DNA of 64,000 nt from Choricystis sp. odSpoLacu1 (Eukaryota; Chlorophyta; Trebouxiophyceae), in NCBI GenBank assembly GCA_958009055.1, contig OY253651.1:372001-436000 (forward strand), read 5' to 3'. The notes beneath the pieces were generated by a model that saw only the letters and a program-made list of their open reading frames with translations, was not told the DNA's origin and did not search any database. The translations under genes were made by a program, and so were the position numbers. Of this stretch, positions 1 through 21,814 are shown in pieces; positions within the stretch are counted from its first letter, which is position 1, and every line of letters begins with the position of its first letter.

Positions 1-525
1 TTGGCGGAGAAAGGGCGTGGGGAGAGCACTGGTGGCGCGTGCCACGGCAGACGCGCGCGCGCGCGGCGCGTCCAGTGTGGTCGCCTTTGTTCCGCCGGGG
101 AAAAATCGCCTGTTTTTTCAGAGGTGTGGGTTCCGCATCAGCACAGCGTACCGGATGTTGAGGCATGAGGAGTCGACGGGGTAGAAAAGAGAGAATGAAA
201 AGGTTTGTTTTTGTTTTTTCGACATGTTTTTTTTTTTTCGCTCAACACTTGGAGACAGAGAGACACACGCACGCACTAGCCACACTTTGTAAAAGGATTG
301 AATGAAAGGAAACTACACGCGCGGGGGGGGGGGGGGAAAGGGGCTCGCGTCTCACCGTTTTTTTCGAGGGCACAAAACCACCTCGCCACCCCCACTCCTC
401 CCACTCTTCCACACGCACCCGCCCAGACCCCACACACCCGCACGCAAATAGGCCAAAGGGCCACATTGGAACACCCTCTTAAAAAAAATCCTAGTTTTCA
501 CCAAAAAAAAAACTCCTCTCTGCCA
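1..525. other. Left-edge region without a supported gene
   Basis: This stretch lies 3' of CYC1. It contains a poly-T tract ending in TCG near 225-240, a 10-base or longer G run near 325, and a CG-T7-CG tract at 358-364. A minus-strand open frame starts at an ATG at 166 and runs off the left end (about 55 codons, basic, no recognisable motif). It could be the first exon of a gene outside the window, but nothing in its composition proves this. Confidence 0.4.
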
Positions 526-5515: not shown

Positions 5516-8063
5516 TCACCCACCCCCACCACCCCCGCCACCCGCGTCGTGCAGCCGCCACAGCACCAACAAGAACAACACTGCAGACGACGCCGAGAAC
5601 ACGGTCAACAGGATGAGCCACGGCTTTTCGGAGCGCTCCACCGCTTTGCGCACCAGGGCTTCAGCGTGCACCTCCTTCAGTTTCCACGAGTTTTTGACTT
5701 CCTCTGCGATGGCTTCTAGGGGCAGGTCGGCGGGGACATTTATGTCGGTGTCATCGACGGGAGAGTCGGCGGACCGGGGCTCTTTCTTCGGGGGCGGAGC
5801 GACGGGTTTTTGAGTGCGGTCGGCCCACCACCCACCCACGGCCGCGCCCACGCCGCTCGCCCAGCCGCCCACCGCGCCCCCCACGCCGGACGCCCACGAC
5901 TTGACGGCGGCGGTGGCGACCGCGGTTTTGCTGCCGGTGGCGGGGGGGGGTGGACGACGCGGGCGTGGCACCGTCGGCCGTGGTCGACGACAGCGCGGCC
6001 CCCTGCGCTCTTTGCGCCGCGTCCATCACGCTGTGCTCTGGCAGCTCCAGCCTCGGCCCAGGCGTCGCCAGATCCTCGTCTGCGTGCCCCACAAACGCGG
6101 CTTGAGGAGGGGGGCGGGGGACGCCGGGTGGAGGGGCCAGGGCGGCCACCAGTTCGCGCGGCGGCGCGCCGTCGTCGTCGGCGGCGGCGCTGCTGCCGGC
6201 CGCGGCCGCGGCGGCGGCCTCAATCGACCCCAGCACCGCATTCACGGCTGCGTCCGCAGTCTCGGGCGCGTCCGCCAGGGACAGCGCGCCATCCCCCGCG
6301 TCCAGCAGGGCGGCGGCCGCCGCGCCGGCCGCCGCGTCGGCGGCCGCGACCGCGTCGGCCGTCGCGCCCAGCGTGCGGGGCGCCGCGATGGCGGGCCTCG
6401 GGGACGCGGGGGTGGCCTTGTCCCCGCCAAATGCGTAGGGTGCGTCCTCGTCCGCCACGTCCGAGATGCGGAACTCGACGGCGGGGAAGATGTCGTCTGG
6501 CGAGACGGCGGTGACGTCGACGACGCGGCGCGCAGGAGCGACACTCTTCTCCTCCTCCTCCGACGCCGTCGTCCAGGATGATGAGGATGCATCCGAGGCG
6601 GCACGCTGCGCCACCGCATCGCTTGCCGTCTGCTCGCCGTCCGCGGCAGCGCGCCGAGCCGCGCGCGCCGCGCGCGCGGCTTTGGTGGCCTTGGTCGCCG
6701 CGCGCGCGGCGGCCGCCTTGGTCACCGCCACCGCGGCCGCAGCAGCGGAGGCAGCCACCGCGGCTCTCGACGACGCATCCGCAGCCGACTTGACGTCCGT
6801 GATCTCGGACGACCGCCCCGACGGCCACGTGTCGCCGCGCCGCGCGGCGGCCGCGCGCGCTTCGCGGTACCCTGAATCCTCTTCATCGTCTTCAAAGGGT
6901 CTGTAGACGAGCGACAGCTTGAGCTCGCCCTCGTCACGCGCGCCAGAGGCGGGGGGGGCGGCCACGGGGAGCCAGAGCGTGACAGCACCGTCAGCCGGCA
7001 TCGAGGCGAGGGAGAACTCAACCCGCCCGACATCCGCGCGCCCCGTGACGTGGGAGTCGCGCACGTCAATGGTCAACACTTGGACAGCCGGGTCCTCCAC
7101 CAGCAGCTGAAACTCTTGGTTCCACACGGGGGCGCGGTGGGACCCCGCGTGCGAGGTCGCGTCGTCGCGGCGCGAGCGGACGGCCTGCGAGCCGAGGGTG
7201 AGGCGGCAGTAGGGGTTGGACTGCCAGGGGAAACCCCAGACAGGCAGGTCGCGGGCCTCGTGCAGGGTGACGCACAGTTCGCCCACAAACGAGTCGGGCA
7301 GGGAGACGCCGCCCGCGGCTGATTGAGGGCCGAGGGGGAGTGCAGCCGCGAGCGCGGTTTCCAGCGCGTCGGCTTGCAGCACTGCCGTCGCGACAGCCCG
7401 CATGACAGCGTCCCTCCCCACGGCAGCCTCCGCCACCGCGGTGACGGCGGGCGGGATGTTGATCTCCAGGCGGCGGGGGAGGACCATGAGGCCGGGCAGG
7501 TCGACGGTGAAGAGGCGGGTGAGGTACGCCTGCAGAATGGGGATGCGCATCAACCGCACCCGGTTGTACGGCGACAGCTGCACCTTGACGTCGGGCTGCC
7601 CCACAAACGCCAGGGACAGGGTGCCGACGTAGGGGCACATGGGGGCGAGCCTCACCTTGATCCAGGTGGCGCACTCGAGGTCGACGTCGGACACGAGGAC
7701 GGGCACCTTGACGCGCCACCTCGCCTGCCCCACCTCCAGCAGCAGCAGCATGCGGGCGCCCCCCGTGTACCTCAGGTCGACGACGCCGTTGAGGTCGGAA
7801 TCTTTGCGGGAGGTGCGGCGGCGCATGCAGGAGAAGGAGGGGGCTTCGTGGTCGAGCGTGAACTCGAGGATGCGCAGGCGCTGCACAAAGCGGGGGACCT
7901 GGCCGTCGGCCACGAGGCCGTCGAAGACGGGCTGGAGGAGGAAGGCGAACCAGCGTTCGAGGCCGCGCTGGTAGACGCGCCAGGCCTGGGTGTGGGTGGG
8001 GTGGGGGGTGGGGGGGTGGGGGGGTGGGGGGGGGCGTGAAACGACCGAGCACACACGCACGCG

Positions 8064-8094
<31 letters not shown>

Positions 8095-8345
8095 TGCCAC
8101 CGCCCACCATCCACAACCATCCTCACCTTGCGCACACACATGTTCACCCACTCCACCGCCTCTGCGTCGTCCTGGTACAGGACGAGCGCTGTCGTGGCAG
8201 CGTCATTGCGCGCGGCGGTGCTGGTGCTGCCCCCCTCCCCATCCGCCTCGGGCGCCCACCACACAAACCGGCGCACAATGCGCCGCGTCAGCGGCAGGTG
8301 GGACGCCCACCTCAGCAGGGCGGTGGCGCCCAGGGCGGCCGCCAT
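5516..8345 (-). CDS. SMP- and C2-domain lipid-transfer protein (extended-synaptotagmin/NTMC2-like)
   Basis: SMP-C2 proteins bridge membranes at contact sites and move lipids. Exon 1 is 8345-8127 and exon 2 is 7985-5516, giving about 895 residues. After a short N-terminal part, residues about 74-270 match an SMP domain (LRILEFTLDHEAPSF, DLNGVVDLRYTGG, VPVLVSDVDLECATWIKVRLAP, LPGLMVLPRRLEI). A C2 domain follows at about 305-430 (GELCVTLHEARDLPVWGF...SNPYCRLTLG). Its first loop lacks the usual calcium-binding acidic pair. Then comes a long Ala/Ser/Asp-rich linker and one C-terminal membrane helix (WLILLTVFSASSAVLFLLVLW), as in plant NTMC2T5-type proteins. The frame breaks at a nine-C run (5942-5950). 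Dropping one C joins the linker to the helix. Confidence 0.75.
8050..8094. repeat. (CA/CG)n microsatellite in the SMP/C2 intron
   Basis: Alternating CA and CG dinucleotides fill much of the single intron (7986-8126). The intron is 141 bases long, a multiple of three, and has no stop in the host frame. Confidence 0.8.
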
Positions 8346-9364
8346 GCCGGCGACGAAAAAGCGGCCGTCGCGGCCGGGCAGCGGGGGAGGGGGGGGAGAA
8401 TGGGCGGGCCATCATGCCGGGCGTCGCGCCGGCAAGGGGGGCGTGCACGGTGGTGGGCGGCAGGTGGCGGCTGGTGTGAGGAGAGGGGAGGGTTGGTTGG
8501 TCGCAGGGTCGTCGGCGAGCGACGAGGACGGCCGGAAGCCAATGGCCGTGCGCGACGGTGGGCCTCTCTCCCCGCGCACATTCTGCCCACGCCCCCCCCG
8601 ACACTAAGACGTCACACACACACACACACTCACCCGCTGACCGACGCAAACGCGCCCGCCTCCACGCGCTCCGCATCGCTGCGCACGGGCACGGGGGGCA
8701 GTGGGCGCGCAGTCGCTGCCTCGGCACCGCGTGCCGACTCGAGGGGCGCGTGTGGCGGCGTGTGTCGAGACTGTGCACGCTGTCGGGGAGGGAGGAGGAG
8801 GGGGAGGGGGAGTGAGAGGCAGGGGTAAGGAGTCATCGGCGGCCGAACCCAACGCGGCACCCCGACACGCAAGGTGCTTCGTTTGCGCCATCGCAACTGA
8901 AGCCTGCACACTAGGTGTTGATGGGATTTCGTTATTTTTTGTCATTTTGACGGCTTTTTTAATTCCAATTTGCATTCTTGTGTGTCAAAGTGCGGCAGTC
9001 GGCTGCCGCGTTCCCACACTCCACACGCACCGTGGCGGCTGCACACAACCGTCGCCGTGGCGGCAGCAGCGGCCCCGCCGGCCGGCTGGGCGCGACCGGG
9101 GGGGGTCGTGCGGCCAGGGCCGGCATGGACGCAGGGGGGGGTGCGTCGGCGGGGGCGGAGGGTGGGAAGAGAGGGGAAACGAGAGGGTGAAACCTGATTG
9201 GGGAGTGACGCGTTTTTTTCGCTTTTCCGTCCTCCTCACCGCCGACCCGGTGCTTTCGTTGGTTTCCACACCCCAGAAAAGACAAGCAAGCGTGCGCGCG
9301 CACACACACACGCAGAAACACTAGCGATGGAAAGAAAGAAAAGGAGCCAAAAAACACTCGCCCT
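8346..9364. other. Intergenic kilobase holding the SMP/C2 promoter and a mitochondrial insertion
   Basis: About 1 kb separates the start of the SMP/C2 gene from the 3' end of the RING gene. I see no GC3-rich coding frame. It contains the nad4 fragment (separate entry) and a CG-T7-CG tract at 9213-9219. Confidence 0.5.
8908..8984 (+). pseudogene. nad4: Nuclear insertion of mitochondrial nad4 fragment (NUMT)
   Basis: A sharply AT-rich island in otherwise GC-rich DNA translates from 8911 without a stop as LGVDGISLFFVILTAFLIPI followed by CILV. This is the highly conserved core of NADH dehydrogenase subunit 4 (canonical form LG(I/L)DGISLFF followed by LTTFLIPICIL). Codon use (TTA, TTT, ATT, GCT, GTT) is organellar and opposite to every nuclear gene here. 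Only about 25 of some 490 codons are present, with GC-rich non-homologous DNA on both sides, so this is a non-functional transfer rather than a nuclear gene. Confidence 0.9.
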
Positions 9365-10875
9365 TCACTCGTCCTCCGACGACGTCGCAAACTCAGAACG
9401 AGCGGCGGCGACGGCGGCAGCGGGCCTGCCAACAGAGCGGGCGGCCTCCATGACGGCGGCAGCCGCCGCCTCTACCCGTTGCACGGCATCGGTGGCCGCA
9501 AGTTCGGCCATCGCGCCCAAGCGCGCCACTTCTGGCCTAGGAGACAGCTCCGGCTCAGAGTCGTGTCCGAGTCTCAAGTCCCGAAGGGGGCCCAGCTGGT
9601 CAGCCGGATATGCAGCCGGATCGGCCGCAGGCGCGGCAGCCGGCTCGGCCGCAGGCTCGGCCGCCCGAGGTGGCGGCGCCAGAGCGGCCACGACGCTCTC
9701 GTTCATCGCCTCAGACACAGCCGCCAGGCGCGAGCCGCGAGGCGGGGTCGCCGTAGGCATCGACGATGGAGCCCACGTGCTCCAGCGCCGCACGCAGCGC
9801 GGCGACCACACAGGACGCACCACCGTCGCCGCGCGGCGCGGCGCGCGCGGCCGCCGAACGCGCAGCCGGCACGATGCCGCTGCCGTCGCCGGCGGCCGCC
9901 ACACCCGCGGTCAGGGCAGCCGCCAGAATGGGGAGGGAGGCGTGCAGCTCGTCCCACCACTCCTCGAACACCCACTTCCTCACCACATCCACTGCTTCCG
10001 CCACCCCCACCAGCGCGCCGCCCACGGTGCGGTGGACGATGACGGCGGCAGCAGAGGCGGCGGCCAGCGTGTCGGCCATGCCGCGGACGCTTTCGTCTTC
10101 GTCGGTGAGGTACTGGTCGGCTTGCATCTGCAGCCACTGCGCAGGTTCGAAGGCGCCGATGAACGCGCCGCCGCCACCGCCACCTACATCCTCGTCCGAG
10201 TCGTACCCCTCCGAGTCGGTGTAGCCTTCGTCTCCATCGTGGTGGTGGCCACCGTGCCCGCCGCACAGCATCCCCAGCTCGCCCGCCAGAGCGTCCGACC
10301 ACTCGCGCACGGTGGGCAACGGCGGCGGCGCGTCGGCCTCCGCCGCCTCGTCACGCGGTTGAGACGGCGGCAGGACCGCCGCCAGGGCCGCCACCACGCC
10401 CTCCACCGCGCGCACGTGCACCGGGGCAGAGCGCACGCGCGCGCGGCAGGAGGGGCACGCGATCGGGCGCCCGCGCGACGACGCGACGCGGGCCATGGCC
10501 AGGAGGCAGTGGCCACAGAACAGGTGGCCACATTGCAGCGCGTGCGGGGCGGATGGGAGGGAGAGGCAGATGGCGCAGGTGAGCTGGGTGGGTGGGTTTG
10601 GGGTGGGCGCCCACTCAAACCTCGGGGAAGCAGGCCGCTGGCACCCACCGGCCCCCACCCGCGCCTTGGCCCCGCCTCGGGAGCATGCCCACAGCGTGTG
10701 CATGCCGGCGCCGCGCCCGCCGACCCACCCGAGGCGCCCTCACCCCCCCAAGACTGCCAACACCCCTCACCTCGCTGCGCGACGCCTTCACCGCCTTGAG
10801 CGCGCCCTCGCCGTGCTTGCGGCCTGACGGCGACGGGCGCGGCATGCGCTTGCGTTTTTTGGCGGGAGTCATCAT
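9365..10875 (-). CDS. RING-finger protein, probable E3 ubiquitin ligase
   Basis: Exon 1 (10875-10771) encodes a basic, nuclear-localisation-like start (MMTPAKKRKRMPRPS). Exon 2 (10583-9365) begins directly with a C3HC4 RING: LTCAICLSLP, QCGHLFCGHCL, then IACPSCRARV. After it come an acidic Asp/Glu/Gly patch, a stretch with a possible amphipathic region (VVRKWVFEEWWDELHASLPIL), and an alanine/proline-rich tail ending SEFATSSEDE. The exon 2 frame stops early at 9711. A surplus C in the CCCC at 9744-9747 would restore the tail (AAVSEAMNESVVAALAPPP). The substrate is unknown. The RING is certain, the exact C-terminus less so. Confidence 0.75.
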
Positions 10876-11215
10876 CCGTTTTAGGGTGCGGGTGTCGAGG
10901 GTTCTAGGGTGTGATTTTGTTTGTTTTTTATTTCGTCCCGCTGCCGCTGCCAACGCCGCTGTTTTTCAATGCTTTTCTTCTTTTTATTTCCTTCATGTCA
11001 TCAACCACGAAAGCCAACGCTTGGACCATCGGTTTTACTCAAGACAGAGGGTGTCTCTCCCCACCCTCTGTCTTTCCACGGCGGGCGGCCAAGGCAGGTG
11101 CGGGTGGGGAGGGGAGACGTTCGAAGAGTGAGTCGCGCTCAGTTTTTTTCTCACTCTCTCTTTCGCCGCGCCGCTGCGCGCTTTCCGCGCGCCCTCTCAC
11201 CCTCACCCCTCCTGC
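10876..11215. promoter_or_regulatory. Divergent promoter region, RING/calycin-like genes
   Basis: This 340-base gap separates two head-to-head starts. It contains an AT-richer stretch at 10910-11040 and a T7 tract followed by CTCACTCTC about 70 bases before the plus-strand ATG. I found no organellar homology in the AT-rich part. Confidence 0.45.
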
Positions 11216-12392
11216 ATGGCCATCCCCATCATCGCGGCCGCCGTCGTGGGCGGCGGCGCCCTGCTGAAAGCGCGGCGCGGGCGTGAGTGCAAATTGGGGG
11301 CGGGGGGGGCGCACGCCGCGCGCATTTGGGCCCGCGCCCTGGCGCGACACACAGGCACACACACACGTGCCCAGTGTGAGGCGCATCACGCTGCGACTGT
11401 GGCACGGTTTGGTGGGCGTGGGTGCGCTGGGGCTGCGTCACCGATGCGCAACATTTTGCACAACATTTTTTTCAACAACACCTGCAACCCCCCCCACACC
11501 CCAGGCCGCGCCAACACCCCACTCACACCCCAGCCTCCTCCCCCTCTGCCCGGCGGCCTCACCCTGGAGCAAGCGGTGGCGGTGGAGGAGAACGCGGACG
11601 CCATCACCGCGCGCGTCAACGCAAAGGCGGCCACGCTGCGCGCGCGCGCGGCGGGGCGGGCGGCGGTGCTGGTGGCGGTGGCGGCAGCAGGTGAGTAGGG
11701 TGTGTGATGTGGAAGCGAGATGTATGCGGGTGCGCGGGTCCCTGAATCAAGCCAACCCCTCAACCCTCACCCCCGCAGCCCACCGCCTGCACCCGTTGGC
11801 CGCCGTCGTCGCCGTCGCCATATTCCTCCTCCTCAACGCTTCTTTCCTGAGGCTACTGGCCCGCTCCATCCGCAACCGGCGCCAGATGCAGGCCACCATC
11901 GCCTCCGCGCGCGCCGCGACGGCCGCCGCACGCGCCGCGACCTCGGTCGACGTCGCCTTCACCGGCACCTGGACCAAGGACACGTCTTCCTCCGACTCCA
12001 TGGACGCTGTGCTGGACTTGATGAGGGTGGGAGGGCTGCCCCGCGCCGCGATCACGTTGGTGCGTGGGATCGAGCTGAGAGTGACGCGCGACGTGTTTGA
12101 GATGGCGGCCTTTTCCCCCATCCCCCTGCTGAAAGTGAAAGAGCGCTATTCTCTGACCGGCACCCCCTCCATCCACCGCCGCCGCGACTTGAGGGGAATG
12201 GGCGCGACCGGGAGGACGGTGCGCACGACGCGCGGCGGCGGGTTTTGCACCGTGCTGGCGTGGGGCGCCCCCGTCGCGGGCGAGTGTGTGGACACGTACG
12301 CGGTGGCGGGGGACGTGCTGATGGTGACGTCCACTGTGAAAGTGGAGGCTGGATCTGTCACGTATCGCACTGTGTACCGGCGGAAAGTGTGA
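11216..12392 (+). CDS. Membrane-anchored protein with a calycin/lipocalin-like domain
   Basis: The exons are 11216-11282, 11505-11690 and 11779-12392, giving 288 residues. A short hydrophobic N-terminus (MAIPIIAAAVVGGGALL) is followed by a helical segment, then a membrane span (HPLAAVVAVAIFLLLNASFLRLL). The last 150 residues look like a calycin beta-barrel: VAFTGTWTKDTSSSDSMDAVL at the start (G-x-W signature), alternating strands, and a closing Arg-rich strand (VTYRTVYRRKV). Such domains bind small hydrophobic ligands, but no ligand can be inferred. Intron 1 is 222 bases, in frame and stop-free, so its retention would insert 74 residues. The assignment to calycins is by pattern only. Confidence 0.65.
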
Positions 12393-12568
12393 GAGGGTTA
12401 TTTTTTTTCGGGCAGCGTTAGTTTTTGTTTTGAGTCGGTCGAAATCATTGAACATCGGTTTTGCAGAGCAACATTGTAGTGTTTGTGGGGAGCACATTCA
12501 CATCAGAGGAACAAAAAACAAGGGGGAAACGCTGGGGGAGGGAAAACGCAGAACGAAAAAGACAAAAA

Positions 12569-13960
12569 TCACCGCCTCTGCCTCGGCGCTGCCGTCTCCC
12601 GCTCCACCTCCACCTCGCGCCGCCCCCGCTTGCCGCCAGGGCCGTCCGCGGGACGCCTCCGCCCCCGCTCCGTGCGGCGGGGGGGAGTGGGCCCCCCCAA
12701 GTCCTCGATGTCGCCGCCAGACGGCGACGCGTCGCCGTCGTCGTCGTCATCGTCGCTCGCGTCGCTCGGGCCGTCCGACACATCCTCCAGCTCGCCACCC
12801 TCCTCGTCCTCCCACTCCACATCGTCCTCCGAGTCTCCCTCGATGTAGGCATCTCCATCGGTCCCTGCCTCGGCTTCAGCTTCTGCCTCTTCCGCCGCGT
12901 CGAGCACTTTTTCGTATTCCGCCGTCGGAAAGTTGTAGATGTCGCCATACGTCCCCGCCCGCAGCCGCGCCAGCAGCTCCTGCTCGATGGACGTCTCCAG
13001 TTTGGCCGCTGTCTCGGCTTTGGCTTCGCGCCGGCGTTCGCGCTGCTCGGTGCGCGTGGCGACGGGAATCAGCGTCGTCGTCGACCGCGCGGCCAGGCGG
13101 CGGGCGCGGATGAGGTACTGCGTGATCTTGGTCAGGCGCTGCTTGTTTTTGTGGACGAGAAACTTGGGAAAGTGGGCCAAGTGTTCGTCGATCTAGGGAA
13201 GGAGGGGGGTGGTGCGGTGTGGTGAGTCGAGACCGTGTTTGTTTCCTCTCCTCCTTTCCACAATGCCCTCTCCTTCTCTCATCTCACCTGCTCCAATGCT
13301 TTGGCGTACGCCCGGTGCAGCCTCACCCTCTGCCACAGCTTGGCGGGCGTGTGCGCCCGCTCGATCGTCTTCATGTATAAATAGAGGCGCCCTCCATCCT
13401 CCCGAATGGTGGCGTAGCGCGAGTTGGCCAGGGGGCAGGAGGAGCGGTTGCAGAGGCCGGAAACATTGTACTCGTTGCGGCAAAAGTTCTGGAGGGATGA
13501 AGGGGAGGGACGGTGGTGGGAAACAATTCCAAACAGTCGCCAGGCCCTCTCCCCCACACACCGCCAACACGCACGCCCACTCACCTGCTTGGTCGTCTTG
13601 ACTTTGAAGGCGCAGTGGCCGTGGTTGATGACTTGCCAGATGACCTGTGTGTGTGTGAGGTGGGAGCGTCAGTTTGGGGACGCGCATGCGTTTCACGGCC
13701 GCCCCCTTGGCTTCCGCGCTGGCGACGCCTTCTCCCCCCATTTGCGTCGCTAGTCGGGTGCACACGCAGCATGCACGACTGCACGCCAGGCGGTGTGGGC
13801 AGGCGCGCGCGAGGGCGGGGCGGGGGCCAGCAACACCACGCCGGCGGCCCGCGTCCGGGCGTTGGCTTGTGCGTGTGCACGCCCGGCCGCGGCCGGCGCG
13901 ACACTGGCCTGTGCACACGTGCATGTGTACAATGGCATCACGCACCTCGTCGTGCTGCAT
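12569..13960 (-). CDS. MAK16: MAK16, nucleolar 60S ribosome-biogenesis factor
   Basis: MAK16 acts in pre-60S assembly and 25S/5.8S rRNA maturation. The four exons are 13960-13946 (five codons), 13644-13585, 13488-13288 and 13192-12569, giving 299 residues. The protein starts [20 protein letters not shown]. It continues with the Cys-rich motif [20 protein letters not shown], then [19 protein letters not shown] and [20 protein letters not shown], all hallmark MAK16 segments. The C-terminal third is acidic (Asp/Glu runs) and ends in a basic cluster, as usual. The 15-base first exon begins at the only ATG that gives the family N-terminus. The gene is divergent from the EMAPII-domain gene. Confidence 0.95.
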
Positions 13961-14160
13961 GGCCGCTGAGGAAGAGGGCGCGGGGGCGCCGGGCAGCCGC
14001 AAAGAAAAAACAAGAACGTTTATTTCGTCGTCGAAACACTCGCTTTTTCCCTTCCCTCCCAAATCGTGAGCCGCCCCCTAATCACGCGCGTGTGCCCGTG
14101 TGCGGGTGTGTTTGACCCAACCCAGTCTCTCTATCCACGCGGCTCTTCACATCCTCCCCA

Positions 14161-15607
14161 ATGCCCACCCTCGCCGCCCCCTCGCGCGTCGCGGTGGCCG
14201 ACGTGCTGCTGGCCGCGTCGGCAGCAGGCGTCGACCTACCCCTCACCCAGGCCCCGTCCCTGGCGTTGAAGCTGGATGACGGCACCACCGTCACAGAGAG
14301 CAACGCCGCCTGCCGGGCGGTGGTGGGGCTGGCGGGTGACAGCGGCGACGCGCTGCTGGGTGGCCCGGACGCGACTGCGCGGGCCATCGTCGCCGACTGG
14401 CTGGCGCGCCGCCACACCACGTTCAACCCGGTGACGGAGGCGGGGTTGCAAGAGGTGCGTTGAGAGAGGGTGTGGGTTAAGGAGGGGCTTTGATTGAGTG
14501 GGGCCACTCAATCAACACTGCACACCTCGACGGCTCCACCGCCAACCCTCCCTTTTTCCACCCCCTTCCTGTCCAGCTCAACGACCACCTGCTCTCCCGC
14601 ACCTACCTGGCGGGCGGCAGCACTGCGACTCTGGCAGACATCGTGCTGGCGGCTGTGCTGGCGTACGCGGTGGTGAGTGGCAACAGGAATGTTGAGGGGT
14701 GGGGGTCAGAGAAAACATATAAAGACACAACTGCACTTACATTTTTATTGTCCTCTTTCAGTCCAACTTCCCTGCCGCCCAAGTCACCCACTTCCCCGCC
14801 GTCGCCCGCTGGTACGACCACGTCGCCGCCACCGCCGCGGGCGCGGACGACGAGCTGCTGCCGCGCGTGCGGCTGGACCGTGCGCCGTTGCTCGCGCCGG
14901 TGGCTCCTCCTGCGCCTCCCGCCAAAAAGGACGACGCCGCCCCCGGCAAAAAGGAGGGCGGCGCGGCGGCTGCCAATGGGAAAGCTGACGCTAAGAAAGG
15001 GGGGGCTGATGCCAAAGAGGCGAGTGCGGCCGCCGCGCCCGCCGCGGCCTCCAAAAAAATCAAGGCCAAGCCCGGCAAAACGGCCGCCCCCGCCGCTCCC
15101 GCCACCCCCGCCCGCGCCCCCGACGCGTACGACCTGCTGGACGTGCGCGTGGGCCGCATCCTGACAGCGGCCAAGCACCCCGACGCCGACAAACTGTACG
15201 TCGAAACAATTGACTTTGGGGAGGACGCACCCCGCACCGTCGTCTCAGGCCTGGCCGCCCACGTCCCCCTGGACGCGCTGACCGACCGACTGGTGGTATG
15301 TGTGTGCAACCTGAAGTCGGCCGCCATGCGGGGCGTCACCTCGGCTGCCATGGTGCTGTGCGGTGTGGGTGACTCCACCGACCCCATCAACCCTCCTGCG
15401 GGGGCTGCCGTTGGGGACCAGGTCATGGTGGCAGGGTACGAGGGCGAGCCCGAGGCCGTGATCAACCCCAAGAAGAAGAAAACATTTGAAGAGGTGGCTG
15501 CCCACTTTGCGACGTCGGCGGAGGGGGTGTGCACGTACAAAGGGGTGCCGCTGACGGTCAAGGGGGAGGCGGTGACGTCGACGGTAGTCAACGGCAAGAT
15601 TCAGTGA
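14161..15607 (+). CDS. GST-like plus EMAPII tRNA-binding domain protein (Arc1p/AIMP1-like)
   Basis: The exons are 14161-14454, 14577-14672 and 14762-15607, giving 411 residues. Residues about 1-165 resemble the GST-like module of aminoacyl-tRNA synthetase cofactors (SRTYLAGGSTATLADIVLAA). A Lys/Ala-rich linker follows. The C-terminal 165 residues are an EMAPII/OB-fold tRNA-binding domain: DLLDVRVGRILTAAKHPDAD, DKLYVETIDFGE, VVSGLAAHVP, CNLKSAAMRGVTSAAMVLC. This architecture matches yeast Arc1p, which delivers tRNA to MetRS and GluRS. The role here is therefore likely a cytosolic synthetase cofactor (inference). Several plants fuse EMAPII to MetRS instead, so the separate form is worth noting. 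Confidence 0.85.
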
Positions 15608-15689
15608 CCATGAAAGAAAGTAAAGAGCAAAGAACGGAAGGAAGATAAGTTTATCAGCTTGCTACAGGAAAAACACATCTATTCTCCAC

Positions 15690-16781
15690 TCACGTCCTCA
15701 CCCCCCGCCTCCTGTCCGCTACCGCCCCCGGCGTCGGGGGGGACACGCCTGCCGCCTCCCCTAGCCTCGGCGGAGGCGGCGGCGGCAGGTGGCCTGACGC
15801 GGTGTAGTGGGAGCGGCAGGCGGGCGCGTAAGTGTCTGCTCCGCCCACCACCACCACCGCACCCTCTCCACCACCCAGCCTCACGCTGAAGTGGGCGTCA
15901 CACCCGCACCACGCGCAGGACGCTGCAAGCCTGTCGACGCGTTCAGCGTGGGGGATGAGGGTCAGCACGCCGCCAAACGGGCGGCGCGACGCGTCACCGT
16001 CCAGCCCCGCCACGACGACCGTCTGGCCGCGGGCGTCGGCGGCAGTCGTGGCATACGGCACCAGGTCGTCAAAGAATTGGGCTTCATCGATGGCGACGAC
16101 GTCGGCGTGGGCGGTGGAGGGGGAGGCAGCGTCGACGTCGGCGAGTGCGTCCACCGCGACCGCCGCCGCCCTGGTGCCGGCGTGGGTGGCGATGGCGTCG
16201 ACATCAGAATAGCGTGTGTCGTGAGAGGACGAGATGACGGCGACGGTGCGGCCAGCGGCCTAGAGGGGTTGGGGGAGAGGGTTGTGTGAGCGTGCAAGGG
16301 TGGCGGTGTCGTTTTTCATTTCCCTCCACCCCACACAACCCCAAACGTACTCTGTGCTCTGCCACGCGGCGCAGCAGCTCGGTGGACTTGCCCGCAAACA
16401 TGGGGCCGGTGATGATGTCGATGCGGCCGACGCGGACGGGTGGGTCTGTGGAGAGGGAGGTCGGGTGAAGAGTCGACGTTTTGGCGGCAAGGCGGTCTCG
16501 CGCGCCGACGGCCGCCGCCCGCCCCCGCGCCTCTCTGAAAACATCACCACAATTGCCCCAAATCCACACAACTCACCATCGTCACCATCGCGCGACGCGG
16601 CTGTGCCGATGCGACGGCGCGCCGATGCGGTGACGCGGCGTGCCGCGACCAGGCCGGGGGCAGGGCAGGGCCGGCCGACTGAGGCGCAGCGACTGACTGA
16701 GCATTTGTACATGCGTGTGGAGAGAGGGCGGGGCGTGAAAACCGCCAGACGGCGAAGGAAGTGTGGGCCAACCGGCAACAT
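15690..16781 (-). CDS. TK1: Thymidine kinase, type II (TK1-like)
   Basis: It phosphorylates thymidine with ATP in pyrimidine salvage. The exons are 16781-16577, 16445-16351 and 16259-15690, giving 289 residues. Walker A is GPMFAGKST (residues 82-90) and the DEAQFF Walker B/catalytic Glu is at 158-163. The zinc site is SCAWCGC (Cys215, Cys218) paired with CRSH (Cys248, His251). The lasso region includes a tyrosine in ADTYAPACR. An N-terminal extension of about 70 residues, rich in Arg/Ser/Ala and lacking acids at first, precedes the kinase fold and suggests import into an organelle (inference). The proline-rich C-terminus is divergent. Confidence 0.9.
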
Positions 16782-16872
16782 CGCAATTTTTCTTTTCGGC
16801 GAACTCTTCTCGCTGTGCTTTTTCCTCCCTTCCCTCCCTCTGTCAACGTCACCCCGTTTCACAAAAATCAAG

Positions 16873-18558
16873 TCACAGAAACTCCATGTGCACTCTCTCC
16901 ACATCCAGCTCCAAGCACTCCGCGGTGGTCCCCTCCCCCAGCCCCAACAACGTGCTCACGTTGGGCACCGTGCGCCCGCCGTCGCCGTGCACAAACTCTT
17001 TCACGTAGAGACCCGCCTGCGTCGTCAACCGCAGCTCCAGCCTGCGTGGCTTGCCCGCAGGATCAGGCGTGGCCTCTGCCGTCACCACAGTGCGCTCCCG
17101 CACCATCATGGCGCGCCTGTGCTCGACGCGGGTGGGGGTGGTCTGTTTGAGGACCAGGTCGCGAATCGCAGACAGTGTTGTCAAAACACTCTCGCTCACA
17201 TCAACAGGCAACTCCACCAACGCTCTGTACGATTTGCGCTTGGTCGTCTCCCCCTCCTTGATGGCGCCCAGCTTGGAGCGCGGCACGATGGCCAGGCGGC
17301 GGGCGCCGACGCCGACAGCTGCCGCGGTCAGAGCCGCCTCTGCAGCAGCCAGCGCTTCAGGCGTGGGCAGGGGCGCGCGCGCGTTGGCCACGTCCAACAC
17401 AAACGGGCGCCCATCCCCCAGGCACCGCACATCCAGGTCTTCGCGCCCCGCAGTCACGAATTTGGCGCCATCCGCGCGCAGCAGGGGCAGGATGTGGCGT
17501 TCGATCTCTTCCTGGACAGAGGTGCGCCCTTTGCGCTCGCCATCGATGAAGAACGGCGACTGTGACACGTCGCGCTCGTGTTTCAAGTAGTAGCCCCCGA
17601 TGTAGACAGGCAGGCGGCGCACCCGCACCAGCACGTGGGCTGAGGCGGCGGGTGGGGGCGGCGGCACGCCTGTCGCGGCCTGCAGCCTGTCCACGCTCAG
17701 CGCGGTCGCGGCAGCCACCGCCGTCGAGGACGCCATTTTGCCAATGTCAATGTTGGGGGGCGGCCTCCGTCTCTTCCCATGCAGGTGGCGCCCCCGCCCC
17801 AGTTTGGAGGCGCCCGGCAGGGACGCAGCCTCTCGTGCCGTCTGCGGGTGAATAAAGTGAATGCACACTGAGAGTGTCACGTCGGCGTCGGCGTCGGTGC
17901 CAGCCCGCCTGCTCAAAGCAGACGCCAAAGCAGGCGTCAGCGCCATCTTGGCCGCATCCTTGATGTCGACAACGGCCGCGGTGTGGGCGGCGTGCGGGTT
18001 GGGGCGCGGCAGCGACGGTGGGAGGCCCGCGGCTGCGAGCGCGGCGCCCGCGGCCGCACTACGCACGGCTGCAGAGGCGGGGTAACTGAGCGAGATGCAG
18101 AACGCGCCGTCTGCGTGGCCTTCTTTGTCCACGGCACGCGCCAGGTCGGCGGCAGCGCCGGGCGCTGCACACGTCCACTCGCCCGCCCCGATATCGATCG
18201 CGGCCGCCACCGCAGCCACATCCTTCGGGGTGGGGGGCGCGGTGACGCCGCCGTCATCCACCACCTGCAGCACGCCCAGGCAGAGGGAGCATGGGGTGGA
18301 GGTGTCGAGCGTGGCTGCTGCGGGCGCGCCGGCAAGGTCGGCCAACAGATCGCGCCTGCACGGCGCGCGGGACGCGTACAGCTTGCCGTCTCTGCACCCC
18401 GCAAACCGGAGACAGCAGCGTGGACAGCCTCCACGGGACAGGAGGAAGCAGGCTTGGTCGACGGCGCCCGCGGCGGCCAGGGCGGCCGCGAATGGGGACG
18501 GCAGCTGGGCGGGGGCGGGGGGCGGGGAGGCGACCACGTCCAGTGTAGCGGTCGTCAT
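16873..18558 (-). CDS. PUS10: PUS10, tRNA pseudouridine synthase
   Basis: PUS10 makes pseudouridine 54/55 in tRNA in archaea and many eukaryotes. The gene is a single exon of 561 residues. The N-terminal part carries a zinc-ribbon pair CPRC (45-48) and CSLC (90-93), then the THUMP-containing accessory region. The catalytic half shows RRLPVYIGGYYLKHERDVSQ and GREDLDVRCLGDGRPF (catalytic Asp near 375), followed by TQAGLYVKEFVHGDGGRT near the C-terminus. These are family signatures in the right order and spacing. The lack of introns is unusual beside its neighbours. The gene is divergent from XPB. Confidence 0.94.
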   Translation of the reverse strand: MTTATLDVVASPPPAPAQLPSPFAAALAAAGAVDQACFLLSRGGCPRCCLRFAGCRDGKLYASRAPCRRDLLADLAGAPAAATLDTSTPCSLCLGVLQVVDDGGVTAPPTPKDVAAVAAAIDIGAGEWTCAAPGAAADLARAVDKEGHADGAFCISLSYPASAAVRSAAAGAALAAAGLPPSLPRPNPHAAHTAAVVDIKDAAKMALTPALASALSRRAGTDADADVTLSVCIHFIHPQTAREAASLPGASKLGRGRHLHGKRRRPPPNIDIGKMASSTAVAAATALSVDRLQAATGVPPPPPAASAHVLVRVRRLPVYIGGYYLKHERDVSQSPFFIDGERKGRTSVQEEIERHILPLLRADGAKFVTAGREDLDVRCLGDGRPFVLDVANARAPLPTPEALAAAEAALTAAAVGVGARRLAIVPRSKLGAIKEGETTKRKSYRALVELPVDVSESVLTTLSAIRDLVLKQTTPTRVEHRRAMMVRERTVVTAEATPDPAGKPRRLELRLTTQAGLYVKEFVHGDGGRTVPNVSTLLGLGEGTTAECLELDVERVHMEFL

Positions 18559-18839
18559 TGTTTGTGGGGCAGTGTGTGGGGAGCGGCGGCAACACAGGCG
18601 CCGCGCGCGGGGTGATGGGGGCTCTGCCTTTGAGGGGACAAAGGAGTTTGTCGGCTCACTCTCTGCCGAGCGTTTTTCACGCTCCGCCGCATTACCCTCC
18701 GCGTGGCGCGCGCCTCCTCACCCACACACACTCGCGCCCGCCACATAGACAGAGCGTGTGGCCACCGGGTGCCCGCACCCGCCCCCTCGGCACGCGGCCC
18801 CACTCTCACCTGTCCCGCGCTTCGCTGTGTTTCTCGGCC

Positions 18840-21814
18840 ATGGGCTCTGGTGCGTCCTTCCCCCCCCCGCCCCGCGCCACCCCACTGACGAGAGCCTGCT
18901 TTGGCTTCTGTCTGACGCGGCGTGGAGTGGGCCGAAGTGGCCCCACAGAACGCCACCACACTCACCCCTTCCACCCCGTCCTCTCCCTCCCCAGACCCTC
19001 TCAAACCCAAGCCCGCCGTCACCAAGCGCGCCTCGTCGCGCGCGCGGTCGGCCAGCGCCAAGGCTGCGTCAGCGGCGGTGAGTATGGGTGGAGGAGTGTG
19101 TGTGTTTTGTTTTTGTGTCGCTTCTCGATCGTGTGTTCACCCTCCACACCCTCTCTCCACCCGCGCAGCTCGCCGCCGCTGACGACTCCGACGCCGTCAT
19201 GCTGTCCTCCGACGATGACGACGGCGACGCCTCGCCCCGCCCCTCCTCCTCCCGCCGCGCCAAGCCGCGCGCCGCGCCGTCGCTGCCGCCGCCGCACACG
19301 CGTGCACGCTCGTCCACACCTCACTCTGGCGCCTCCGTCTCCGTGGAAGGGGCCGACATGGACTTTGTGTCGGACGATGACGATGACGCCGACGCCAACC
19401 ACCACTCCTGCCGCACCGGCACGGGGGGTGCTCTGGTCGCGCGCGCGGCGGATTACACAGGCCTAACCTTAAAACCCGACGCCTCGGCCCGCCCGCTCTG
19501 GGTCTGCCCCGACGGCCGCATCCTGCTGGAGACCTTCTCCCCCGTCTACCGCCAGGCCACCGACTTTCTGGTGGCGGTCGCGGAACCCGTGTGCCGCCCC
19601 GCCGCCGTGCACGAGTACGCACTCACCCCCCACTCTCTCTATGCTGCTGTTTCAGTCGGCCTCTCCCCTGCCACCATTACCACCGTCCTCCAACGCCTCT
19701 CCAAAGTGGACCTCCCCCCCGAAGTGCGCCGCTTCGTGGACGCCGCCACCGGCAACTTTGGCAAGGCCAAGCTGGTGCTGGCCCACAACCGTTTTTTTGT
19801 CGAGACGGCCGACGCGCGTGTGGCGGCGACACTTTTGGCCGACCCGACCATCCGGGACGCAGCCGTCGGCGACGCCGCCGTCACGGCGGCCGCGGCGGCC
19901 GCCGAGACGGCGGGCCCCGCCATCGCGGCGGACGTGCTGGCGGCGGCGGATGAAGCGATGGAGGACGGGGGCAAGGGTGGAGGGGAGGAGGGTGGCGCGC
20001 TGGCCAAGGCGGCAGCGGCAGACACTCCTGCCCCTGCCGCACCCCCACCCCCCACCAACCAAGTCTACTCCTTTGAGATTGAAGCCTCCAAAGTGGAGCA
20101 CGTCAAGTCGCGCTGCCTGCCGGGCGGGTTGAACTTTCCTCTCCTAGAAGAGTACGATTTTCGCAACGACGCCACCAACCCAGACCTCGACATCGTGCTC
20201 AAACCCGGCGTCGCCCACCGCCCCTACCAAGAGAAAGCAATGGCCAAAATGTTTGGCAACGGGCGCGCCCGGTCGGGCATCGTCGTGCTGCCGTGCGGTG
20301 CCGGCAAATCATTGGTCGGCATCACGGCCGCCGCCCGCGTCCGCAAATCCACCCTCGTCCTCGTCACCAACCAAGTCTCAGTCGACCAATGGGCCCACCA
20401 GTTCAAGCTGTGGACCAACATGCAGGACCACAACGTGGCGCGGTTCACGGCTGACGCGCGTGAATCGTGGACGGGGGACGCCGGCGTGACGATCACCACG
20501 TACACCATGGTCGCCTACTCTGGCCGCCGCTCTGACGAGGCCGCCCGCGTCATGGACGACATCTCGGGGCGGGAGTGGGGCCTGATCCTGCTGGACGAGG
20601 TGCACGTGGTGCCCGCCGCCATGTTTCGCCGCGTCGTGGGGATCGTCAAGGCGCACGCCAAGCTCGGCCTCACCGCCACCCTCGTCCGTGAGGACGCCCT
20701 CATCACCGACCTCAACTTTCTGATCGGCCCCAAACTGTACGAAGCCAACTGGCTGGACCTCACCCGGGCGGGCCACATCGCCAACGTGTCGTGCGCTGAA
20801 GTGTGGTGCCCGATGACCAAAGAGTTTCACCGCGAGTACCTGCGCTCGGCCAACTCTGCCCGCCGCCCTCTGCTGTACGCCATGAACCCCAACAAGTTTG
20901 CGGCGTGCGCGCTGCTGGTGGACTACCACGAGCGCGTACGGCGGGACAAGGCAAGGGAAGAGGGGGGTGGTGTGCCTGTGTGGGGTCGGTGTGTGCAGCG
21001 CGACGTTTCAAACTCACCTTCCCTCCCCCACCCTCTCTAGGTCATCGTCTTCTCCGACAACATCTTCGCCCTGCGCGAGTACGCCGTCCGCCTGCGCCGC
21101 CCCTTCATCTATGGCGGCACCGGCCACGCGGAGCGCACACGCGTGCTGGCGCGCTTCAAAACTGACCCTGCTGTCAACACCGTCTTCCTCTCCAAAGTGG
21201 GCGACAACTCCATCGACATCCCAGAGGCCAATGTGCTCATCCAGATCTCGTCCCACGCCGGGTCGCGGCGCCAGGAGGCGCAACGCCTGGGCCGCATCCT
21301 GCGCGCCAAGCGCCCGCCGGGGGGCGGCCCGCCCTCACCCGACGAGTTCAACGCCTTCTTCTACACCCTCGTCTCCACCGACACCCAGGAGATGTACTTC
21401 TCGGCCAAGCGGCAGCAGTTCCTGGTGGACCAGGGGTACGCGTTCCGCGTCATCACCAACCTGCTGGGGGACGGGGGGGCCCCCGCGGCCGGCCTCGGGG
21501 GGGGCGCCGCCGCCGCCGGCCCCGCGGGCGGGCTGGCCTCCAAGGACGCCCAACTGGATTTGCTGGCCAAAGTGCTGGCCGCGGGTGAGGAGGAGACGGG
21601 GGAGGAGGTGCTGCCGGGAGGCCCCGTGCGCCGCGTCGGCGGCGGTGCGCGGCGCGCGGGCGGCTCGCTGGCCGCGCTCTCCGGCGCGGGTGGCCTCACC
21701 TACCTCGAGTACGGGGGTGCAGGGGGGCGTGGGTCCACCAAGTCGCGCACCCACACCAAGAGCGGCAAGATGCGGCACATTCTGTTCCGCAAGCGGGCGC
21801 AGGGCAAGCTGTGA
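18840..21814 (+). CDS. ERCC3: XPB/ERCC3 DNA helicase, TFIIH subunit
   Basis: XPB is the TFIIH translocase that opens promoters and damaged DNA. The exons are 18840-18849 (10 bases), 18995-19077, 19169-20950 and 21041-21814, giving 882 residues. Helicase motif I is GAGKS (about residue 403), motif II is DEVH (about 507), motif III is [10 protein letters not shown] (the RED motif), and the C-terminal lobe includes [20 protein letters not shown]. The N-terminal damage-recognition region ([21 protein letters not shown]) is present. The last intron (20951-21040) begins GCAAGG, so it is a GC-AG intron, needed to keep the frame from RRDK to VIVFSDN. The acidic linker between the domains is species-specific. 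Confidence 0.95.

What the first reader, a model, noticed from the sequence alone, without database searches (positions are those of the whole stretch)
8908..8984. Fragment of mitochondrial nad4 in the nuclear genome
An AT-rich island translates as about 24 residues of the most conserved ND4 core (GVDGISLFFVILTAFLIPI), with organellar codons, inside GC-rich intergenic DNA. It is a NUMT by sequence recognition. It shows recent organelle-to-nucleus transfer in a very compact genome and gives a direct read of this species' mitochondrial codon use.
Basis: partly seen in the sequence, partly recalled or inferred. Interest (0 to 1): 0.75.

Follow-up and report, generated by a model that had tools for sequence, protein, structure and literature searches.

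The report
Small mitochondrial nad4 fragment in nucleus
A 70-base scrap of the alga's own mitochondrial nad4 gene sits between two nuclear genes; it looks like an ordinary leftover of DNA repair, one of a handful found in this genome.

Summary
Window 8912-8981 (70 bp, 31% GC, in ~70% GC flanks) is identical, 70 of 70, to G000:C18:14165-14234. C18 is a 34,737-bp, 39% GC contig with a complete nad4 ORF, full-length bacterial-type rRNAs and tRNAs: the mitochondrial genome of the same assembly. The island is a NUMT: 22 whole ND4 codons plus two bases at each end, with abrupt ends, in sequence with no second copy found, between an SMP-C2 gene and a RING-finger ORF. Nothing is unusual: searches with all of C18 found six other likely NUMT loci, 39-1044 bp, 93-100% identical, much like the 23 NUMTs (28-384 bp with the NUPTs) reported for Chlamydomonas reinhardtii. 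'Recent' fits zero differences, but 70 bp dates weakly. 'A direct read of mitochondrial codon use' adds nothing: the mitochondrial contig is in the assembly, and its nad4 uses the standard code. Most likely mechanism: capture of a stray mitochondrial fragment at a chromosome break by end joining (inferred; no empty site was obtained). Long reads could not be examined.

The parts
8912..8981 (+). NUMT: 70 bp of mitochondrial nad4 (sense strand), 100% identical to G000:C18:14165-14234
8914..8979 (+). the 22 complete nad4 codons inside the NUMT (GVDGISLFFVILTAFLIPICIL)
5751..8345 (-). flanking gene: reading frame of an SMP-C2 (extended-synaptotagmin/tricalbin-like) protein; one likely intron of 141 bp at 8126-7986 that keeps the frame open; exon(s) upstream of 8345 not settled
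9711..10703 (-). flanking ORF with a RING finger (C3HC4); exon structure not settled

Best explanation
The island is a NUMT, a nuclear copy of a 70-bp piece of the alga's own mitochondrial nad4 gene. Shown: exact identity to the mitochondrial contig, abrupt ends, nuclear flanks on both sides without a second copy found, and other NUMT-like loci elsewhere in the genome. Inferred: a short mitochondrial DNA fragment reached the nucleus and was ligated into a double-strand break by end joining, without function, and recently enough that no substitution has accumulated in 70 bp.
For: 70 of 70 identity to C18:14165-14234. C18 is mitochondrial: a nad4 ORF of 491 aa whose listed relatives carry PF00361, several named NADH-quinone oxidoreductase chain M; full-length bacterial-type LSU and SSU rRNA, a 5S and tRNAs; 39% GC against 70% in the window. 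A search with 8300-9800 found only itself and, for the island, C18 (the tool skips simple repeats and very common words). Six other likely NUMT loci, one of which (C13) joins two mitochondrial pieces about 470 bp apart in C18, as end joining can. Same size and identity range as the NUMTs of C. reinhardtii.
Against: None against the NUMT itself. Against the details: no empty site from a relative was obtained (one search confirmed no relative), so microhomology and target-site change are not shown; no reads could be examined; recency rests on 70 bp.
Confidence: 0.97

Rival explanations
1. Assembly chimera: mitochondrial read sequence was wrongly placed in the nuclear contig.
For: The match is 100%, as a chimera would give; reads are not available here.
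Against: Two wrong joins 70 bp apart within nuclear sequence of a 1.27-Mb contig would be needed. Five of the six other likely NUMT loci differ from the mitochondrial contig by substitutions or indels, so nuclear copies that are not misplaced reads exist in this genome.
Confidence: 0.02
2. The AT-rich island has been put to use after insertion, as part of the promoter, 5' UTR or first exon of the minus-strand SMP-C2 gene or as another AT-rich element.
For: It lies upstream of that gene; on the minus strand an ATG inside it (8975) opens a 123-aa frame to 8604. C. reinhardtii NUMTs are preferentially near introns and UTRs (passages), and tested short yeast NUMTs confer replication activity (passages).
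Against: That frame has no Pfam match at E 0.01 and is not the frame that, by eye, reads most like an exon before the donor-like site at 8633; the coding sequence shared with relatives begins some 530 bp away and the N-termini of the nine relatives aligned are unlike one another. Long chance frames are common here: 256 ORFs of 120 aa or more in 64 kb.
Confidence: 0.04
3. Chance resemblance of an AT-rich stretch to ND4.
For: 15 other AT-rich islands exist in the window.
Against: 70-bp exact match, E 9e-30; next best match 17 bp, E 0.54.
Confidence: 0.001

Closest known systems
NUMTs of Chlamydomonas reinhardtii CC-5816 (PMC10030371, passages seen)
   Same: Short organelle fragments (28-384 bp, 87.8-100% identity, NUPTs and NUMTs together), lower in GC than the nuclear genome; long-read coverage across them was examined there.
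   Different: Another green-algal species with 23 NUMTs and 33 NUPTs; here 7 likely NUMT loci, the longest 1,044 bp, and one candidate NUPT in the 30 kb of C19 searched.
NUMTs of Saccharomyces cerevisiae (PMC3050842, passages seen)
   Same: Short fragments (37-236 bp for those tested), some captured during repair of double-strand breaks.
   Different: The yeast NUMTs were tested for replication activity; nothing of the kind is tested here.
NUMTs and NUPTs of Mychonastes homosphaera (PMC7354681, abstract start and passages)
   Same: A small (24.23 Mbp), 72.4% GC green picoalga reported to have NUMTs.
   Different: It belongs to the Sphaeropleales; its NUMT tables are in supplements that I did not see.

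Membership tests
NUMT (nuclear copy of mitochondrial DNA) | sequence derived from mitochondrial DNA of the same organism | tested here: met
   70 of 70 identical to C18:14165-14234 in the same assembly; C18 is mitochondrial by its nad4 and rRNAs
NUMT (nuclear copy of mitochondrial DNA) | embedded in nuclear DNA on both sides | tested here: met
   67-71% GC flanks with no second copy found, an SMP-C2 gene on one side and a RING ORF on the other, inside a 1.27-Mb contig
NUMT (nuclear copy of mitochondrial DNA) | not a functional gene copy | tested here: met
   22 of 491 codons only; the complete nad4 ORF remains in C18
NUMT (nuclear copy of mitochondrial DNA) | junctions supported by single reads | not testable with these tools
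   no reads available
NUMT inserted by non-homologous end joining | blunt, short-microhomology or filler junctions against an empty site | tested here: inconclusive
   the match ends abruptly and the next base differs on both sides, but no empty site was available

The most novel reading that the evidence does not exclude
The 70-bp AT-rich mitochondrial fragment has become a working upstream element (open promoter, 5' UTR or new start region) of the SMP-C2 gene in a 70% GC genome.
Probability: 0.04. Interest if true: 0.4.

Novelty: new member of a known kind. Interest (0 to 1): 0.12.

Why it matters
Little by itself. It shows that a small, GC-rich green-algal genome takes up mitochondrial DNA, and the few NUMTs here, being AT-rich in a 70% GC nucleus, could serve as small neutral markers of nuclear mutation bias once relatives are sequenced.

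Tried and rejected
Chance similarity: rejected by the exact 70-bp match. A duplicated nuclear locus with an empty site: none found. Identification as Medakamo hakoo: its published assembly has 18 contigs, two of them organellar, 15.8 Mb and 72.7% GC (passages), against 19 contigs and 14.59 Mb here, so the species is left open; relatives of the SMP-C2 protein point to a green alga, nearest named hit Coccomyxa elongata at 57% over 81% of the query, two unnamed hits being nearer at 94% and 69%. A test of whether NUMT differences run towards GC is uninformative: 11 of 732 mitochondrial GC sites changed to AT in the nucleus against 9 of 1025 AT sites changed to GC, Fisher p 0.26 (seven loci, gapped columns left out, and one alternative overlapping alignment at the C13 locus dropped). 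Hits dropped from the NUMT count: C9:546967 as nuclear 28S rRNA. Hits dropped from the NUPT count: C1:1404277 (68%, taken for a diverged homologous gene, not searched further) and C9:116172 (76%; a tRNA match just above the Rfam cut-off, 30.4 against 29 bits).

Full report
Observation. The window lies at 372001-436000 of contig C3 of a 19-contig, 14.59-Mb assembly. A search of that assembly with window 8880-9010 gave two places: itself and C18:14165-14234, 70 bp at 100%. Base-by-base extension gives a maximal exact match of window 8912-8981 to C18:14165-14234. The island is 31% GC; the 500 bp on either side are 71% and 67%. In blastn of the whole window against C18 it is the only significant match (E 9e-30; the only other match listed is 17 bp at E 0.54); against the unmasked part of C19 the best is E 0.40.

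What the source is. C18 is 34,737 bp and 39.4% GC. Its stretch 10001-20000 (L004) holds full-length ORFs that I recognise as atp1, nad1, nad4, rps12, rps7, cox2, cox3 and atp6 (apart from nad4 these names are my recognition, not a search). The nad4 ORF (C18:13933-15408, 491 aa) has 120 listed relatives, all with PF00361, several named NADH-quinone oxidoreductase chain M (the list and the candidates were capped). Rfam finds full-length bacterial-type LSU and SSU rRNA, a 5S rRNA and tRNAs on C18. C18 is therefore the mitochondrial genome. Contig C19 (91,072 bp) is probably the plastid genome; this is inferred from its size and from rRNA and gene similarity to C18, not tested further, and part of it is masked. 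nad4 reads through with the standard code, 0 TGA and 9 TGG codons.

The fragment. It holds the last two bases of a Val codon, 22 complete codons and the first two bases of the next Val codon (counted from the coordinates). At both ends the identity stops at once: the next base differs on each side. The flanking nuclear bases read CACAC before and GTGTC after, so a simple joined site would hold a short palindrome; as CA/GT tracts are seen nearby and there is no empty site, I draw nothing from that.

Surroundings. On the minus strand, at lower coordinates, lies a gene for an SMP-C2 protein (PF25669 and PF00168), with 364 relatives at E <= 0.001 among 7995 scored candidates; the highest-scoring named ones are green algae. 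I aligned the window frame with nine of the 120 listed relatives. The part alike between them begins at the membrane segment near 8381-8345. A likely 141-bp intron at 8126-7986 follows from the splice-like ends and from the alignment: seven of nine relatives lack the stretch, P0002 has a shorter unlike one, and P0024 has a wider gap there. A donor-like GTGAGT at 8633 suggests a further exon upstream, not proven. At higher coordinates is a RING-finger ORF, 9711-10703, also minus. The island thus lies upstream of the SMP-C2 gene, about 530 bp from its shared coding sequence. Three frames that cross or overlap it (8701-9324 plus, 8604-8975 and 8959-9432 minus) have no Pfam match at E 0.01.

Other NUMTs. 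All four pieces of C18 were searched against the own assembly. Setting aside C18 itself, C19, and C9:546967, which is nuclear 28S rRNA, seven nuclear loci remain: C3 (this one), C14:261937-262980 (1,044 bp, 98%), C1:1380344-1380590 (247 bp, 98%, also nad4), C11:389626-389810 (185 bp, 99%), C13:62738-62871 (two pieces, 93% and 96%), C4:822005-822044 (40 bp, 98%) and C14:174995-175033 (39 bp, 100%). Together they span about 1.76 kb, some 0.012% of the 14.47 Mb outside C18 and C19 (my arithmetic). The tool states that such counts are lower bounds. Three of ten fetched C19 pieces were searched, 30 kb of 91 kb: one candidate NUPT of 46 bp at 91% without an Rfam match (C10:78067-78112), one 68% match that I take for a diverged homologous gene, and one weak tRNA-like match.

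Age and mechanism. Zero differences in 70 bp is compatible with recent insertion, but by the rule of three it bounds divergence only at about 4%; two of the seven loci have no difference and five have some. Insertion by end joining at a break is the usual explanation for such fragments (established knowledge) and is inferred here. The two-piece C13 locus fits it: its two best alignments overlap by 3 bp and lie on opposite strands of C18, although the first 26 bases of the locus also match the other strand at 100%, so the orientation of that piece is not certain.

Comparison. Passages of PMC10030371 report 33 NUPTs and 23 NUMTs of 28-384 bp at 87.8-100% identity in C. reinhardtii, with NUMTs preferentially near introns and UTRs. 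The present one falls inside both ranges. M. homosphaera, another GC-rich picoalga, is reported to have NUMTs (passages of PMC7354681).

Noticed in passing
L017 (G000:C14:261937-262980): A 1,044-bp NUMT (98%) of the 3' part of mitochondrial LSU rRNA plus a tRNA; the eight nuclear bases just before it repeat the first eight of the insert (GACTCAGT twice in tandem).
   Followed up: partly
L020 (G000:C13:62738-62871): Composite NUMT: two mitochondrial pieces about 470 bp apart in C18, joined with a 3-bp overlap; the orientation of the first piece is ambiguous because part of it also matches the other strand.
   Followed up: partly
L027 (G000:C11:389626-389810): A 185-bp NUMT from the ORF I recognise as cox2, whose start (GATGCTA) is the inverse complement of nuclear bases seven positions before it (TAGCATC): a possible snap-back junction, or chance.
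   Followed up: no
L022 (G000:C9): Nuclear rDNA with a group I intron match (RF00028) upstream of the 5.8S gene.
   Followed up: no
window 155-279 and 14 other places: Fifteen other islands of the window hold a 70-mer of at most 40% GC; none has a significant match to C18. What they are was not looked into.
   Followed up: no
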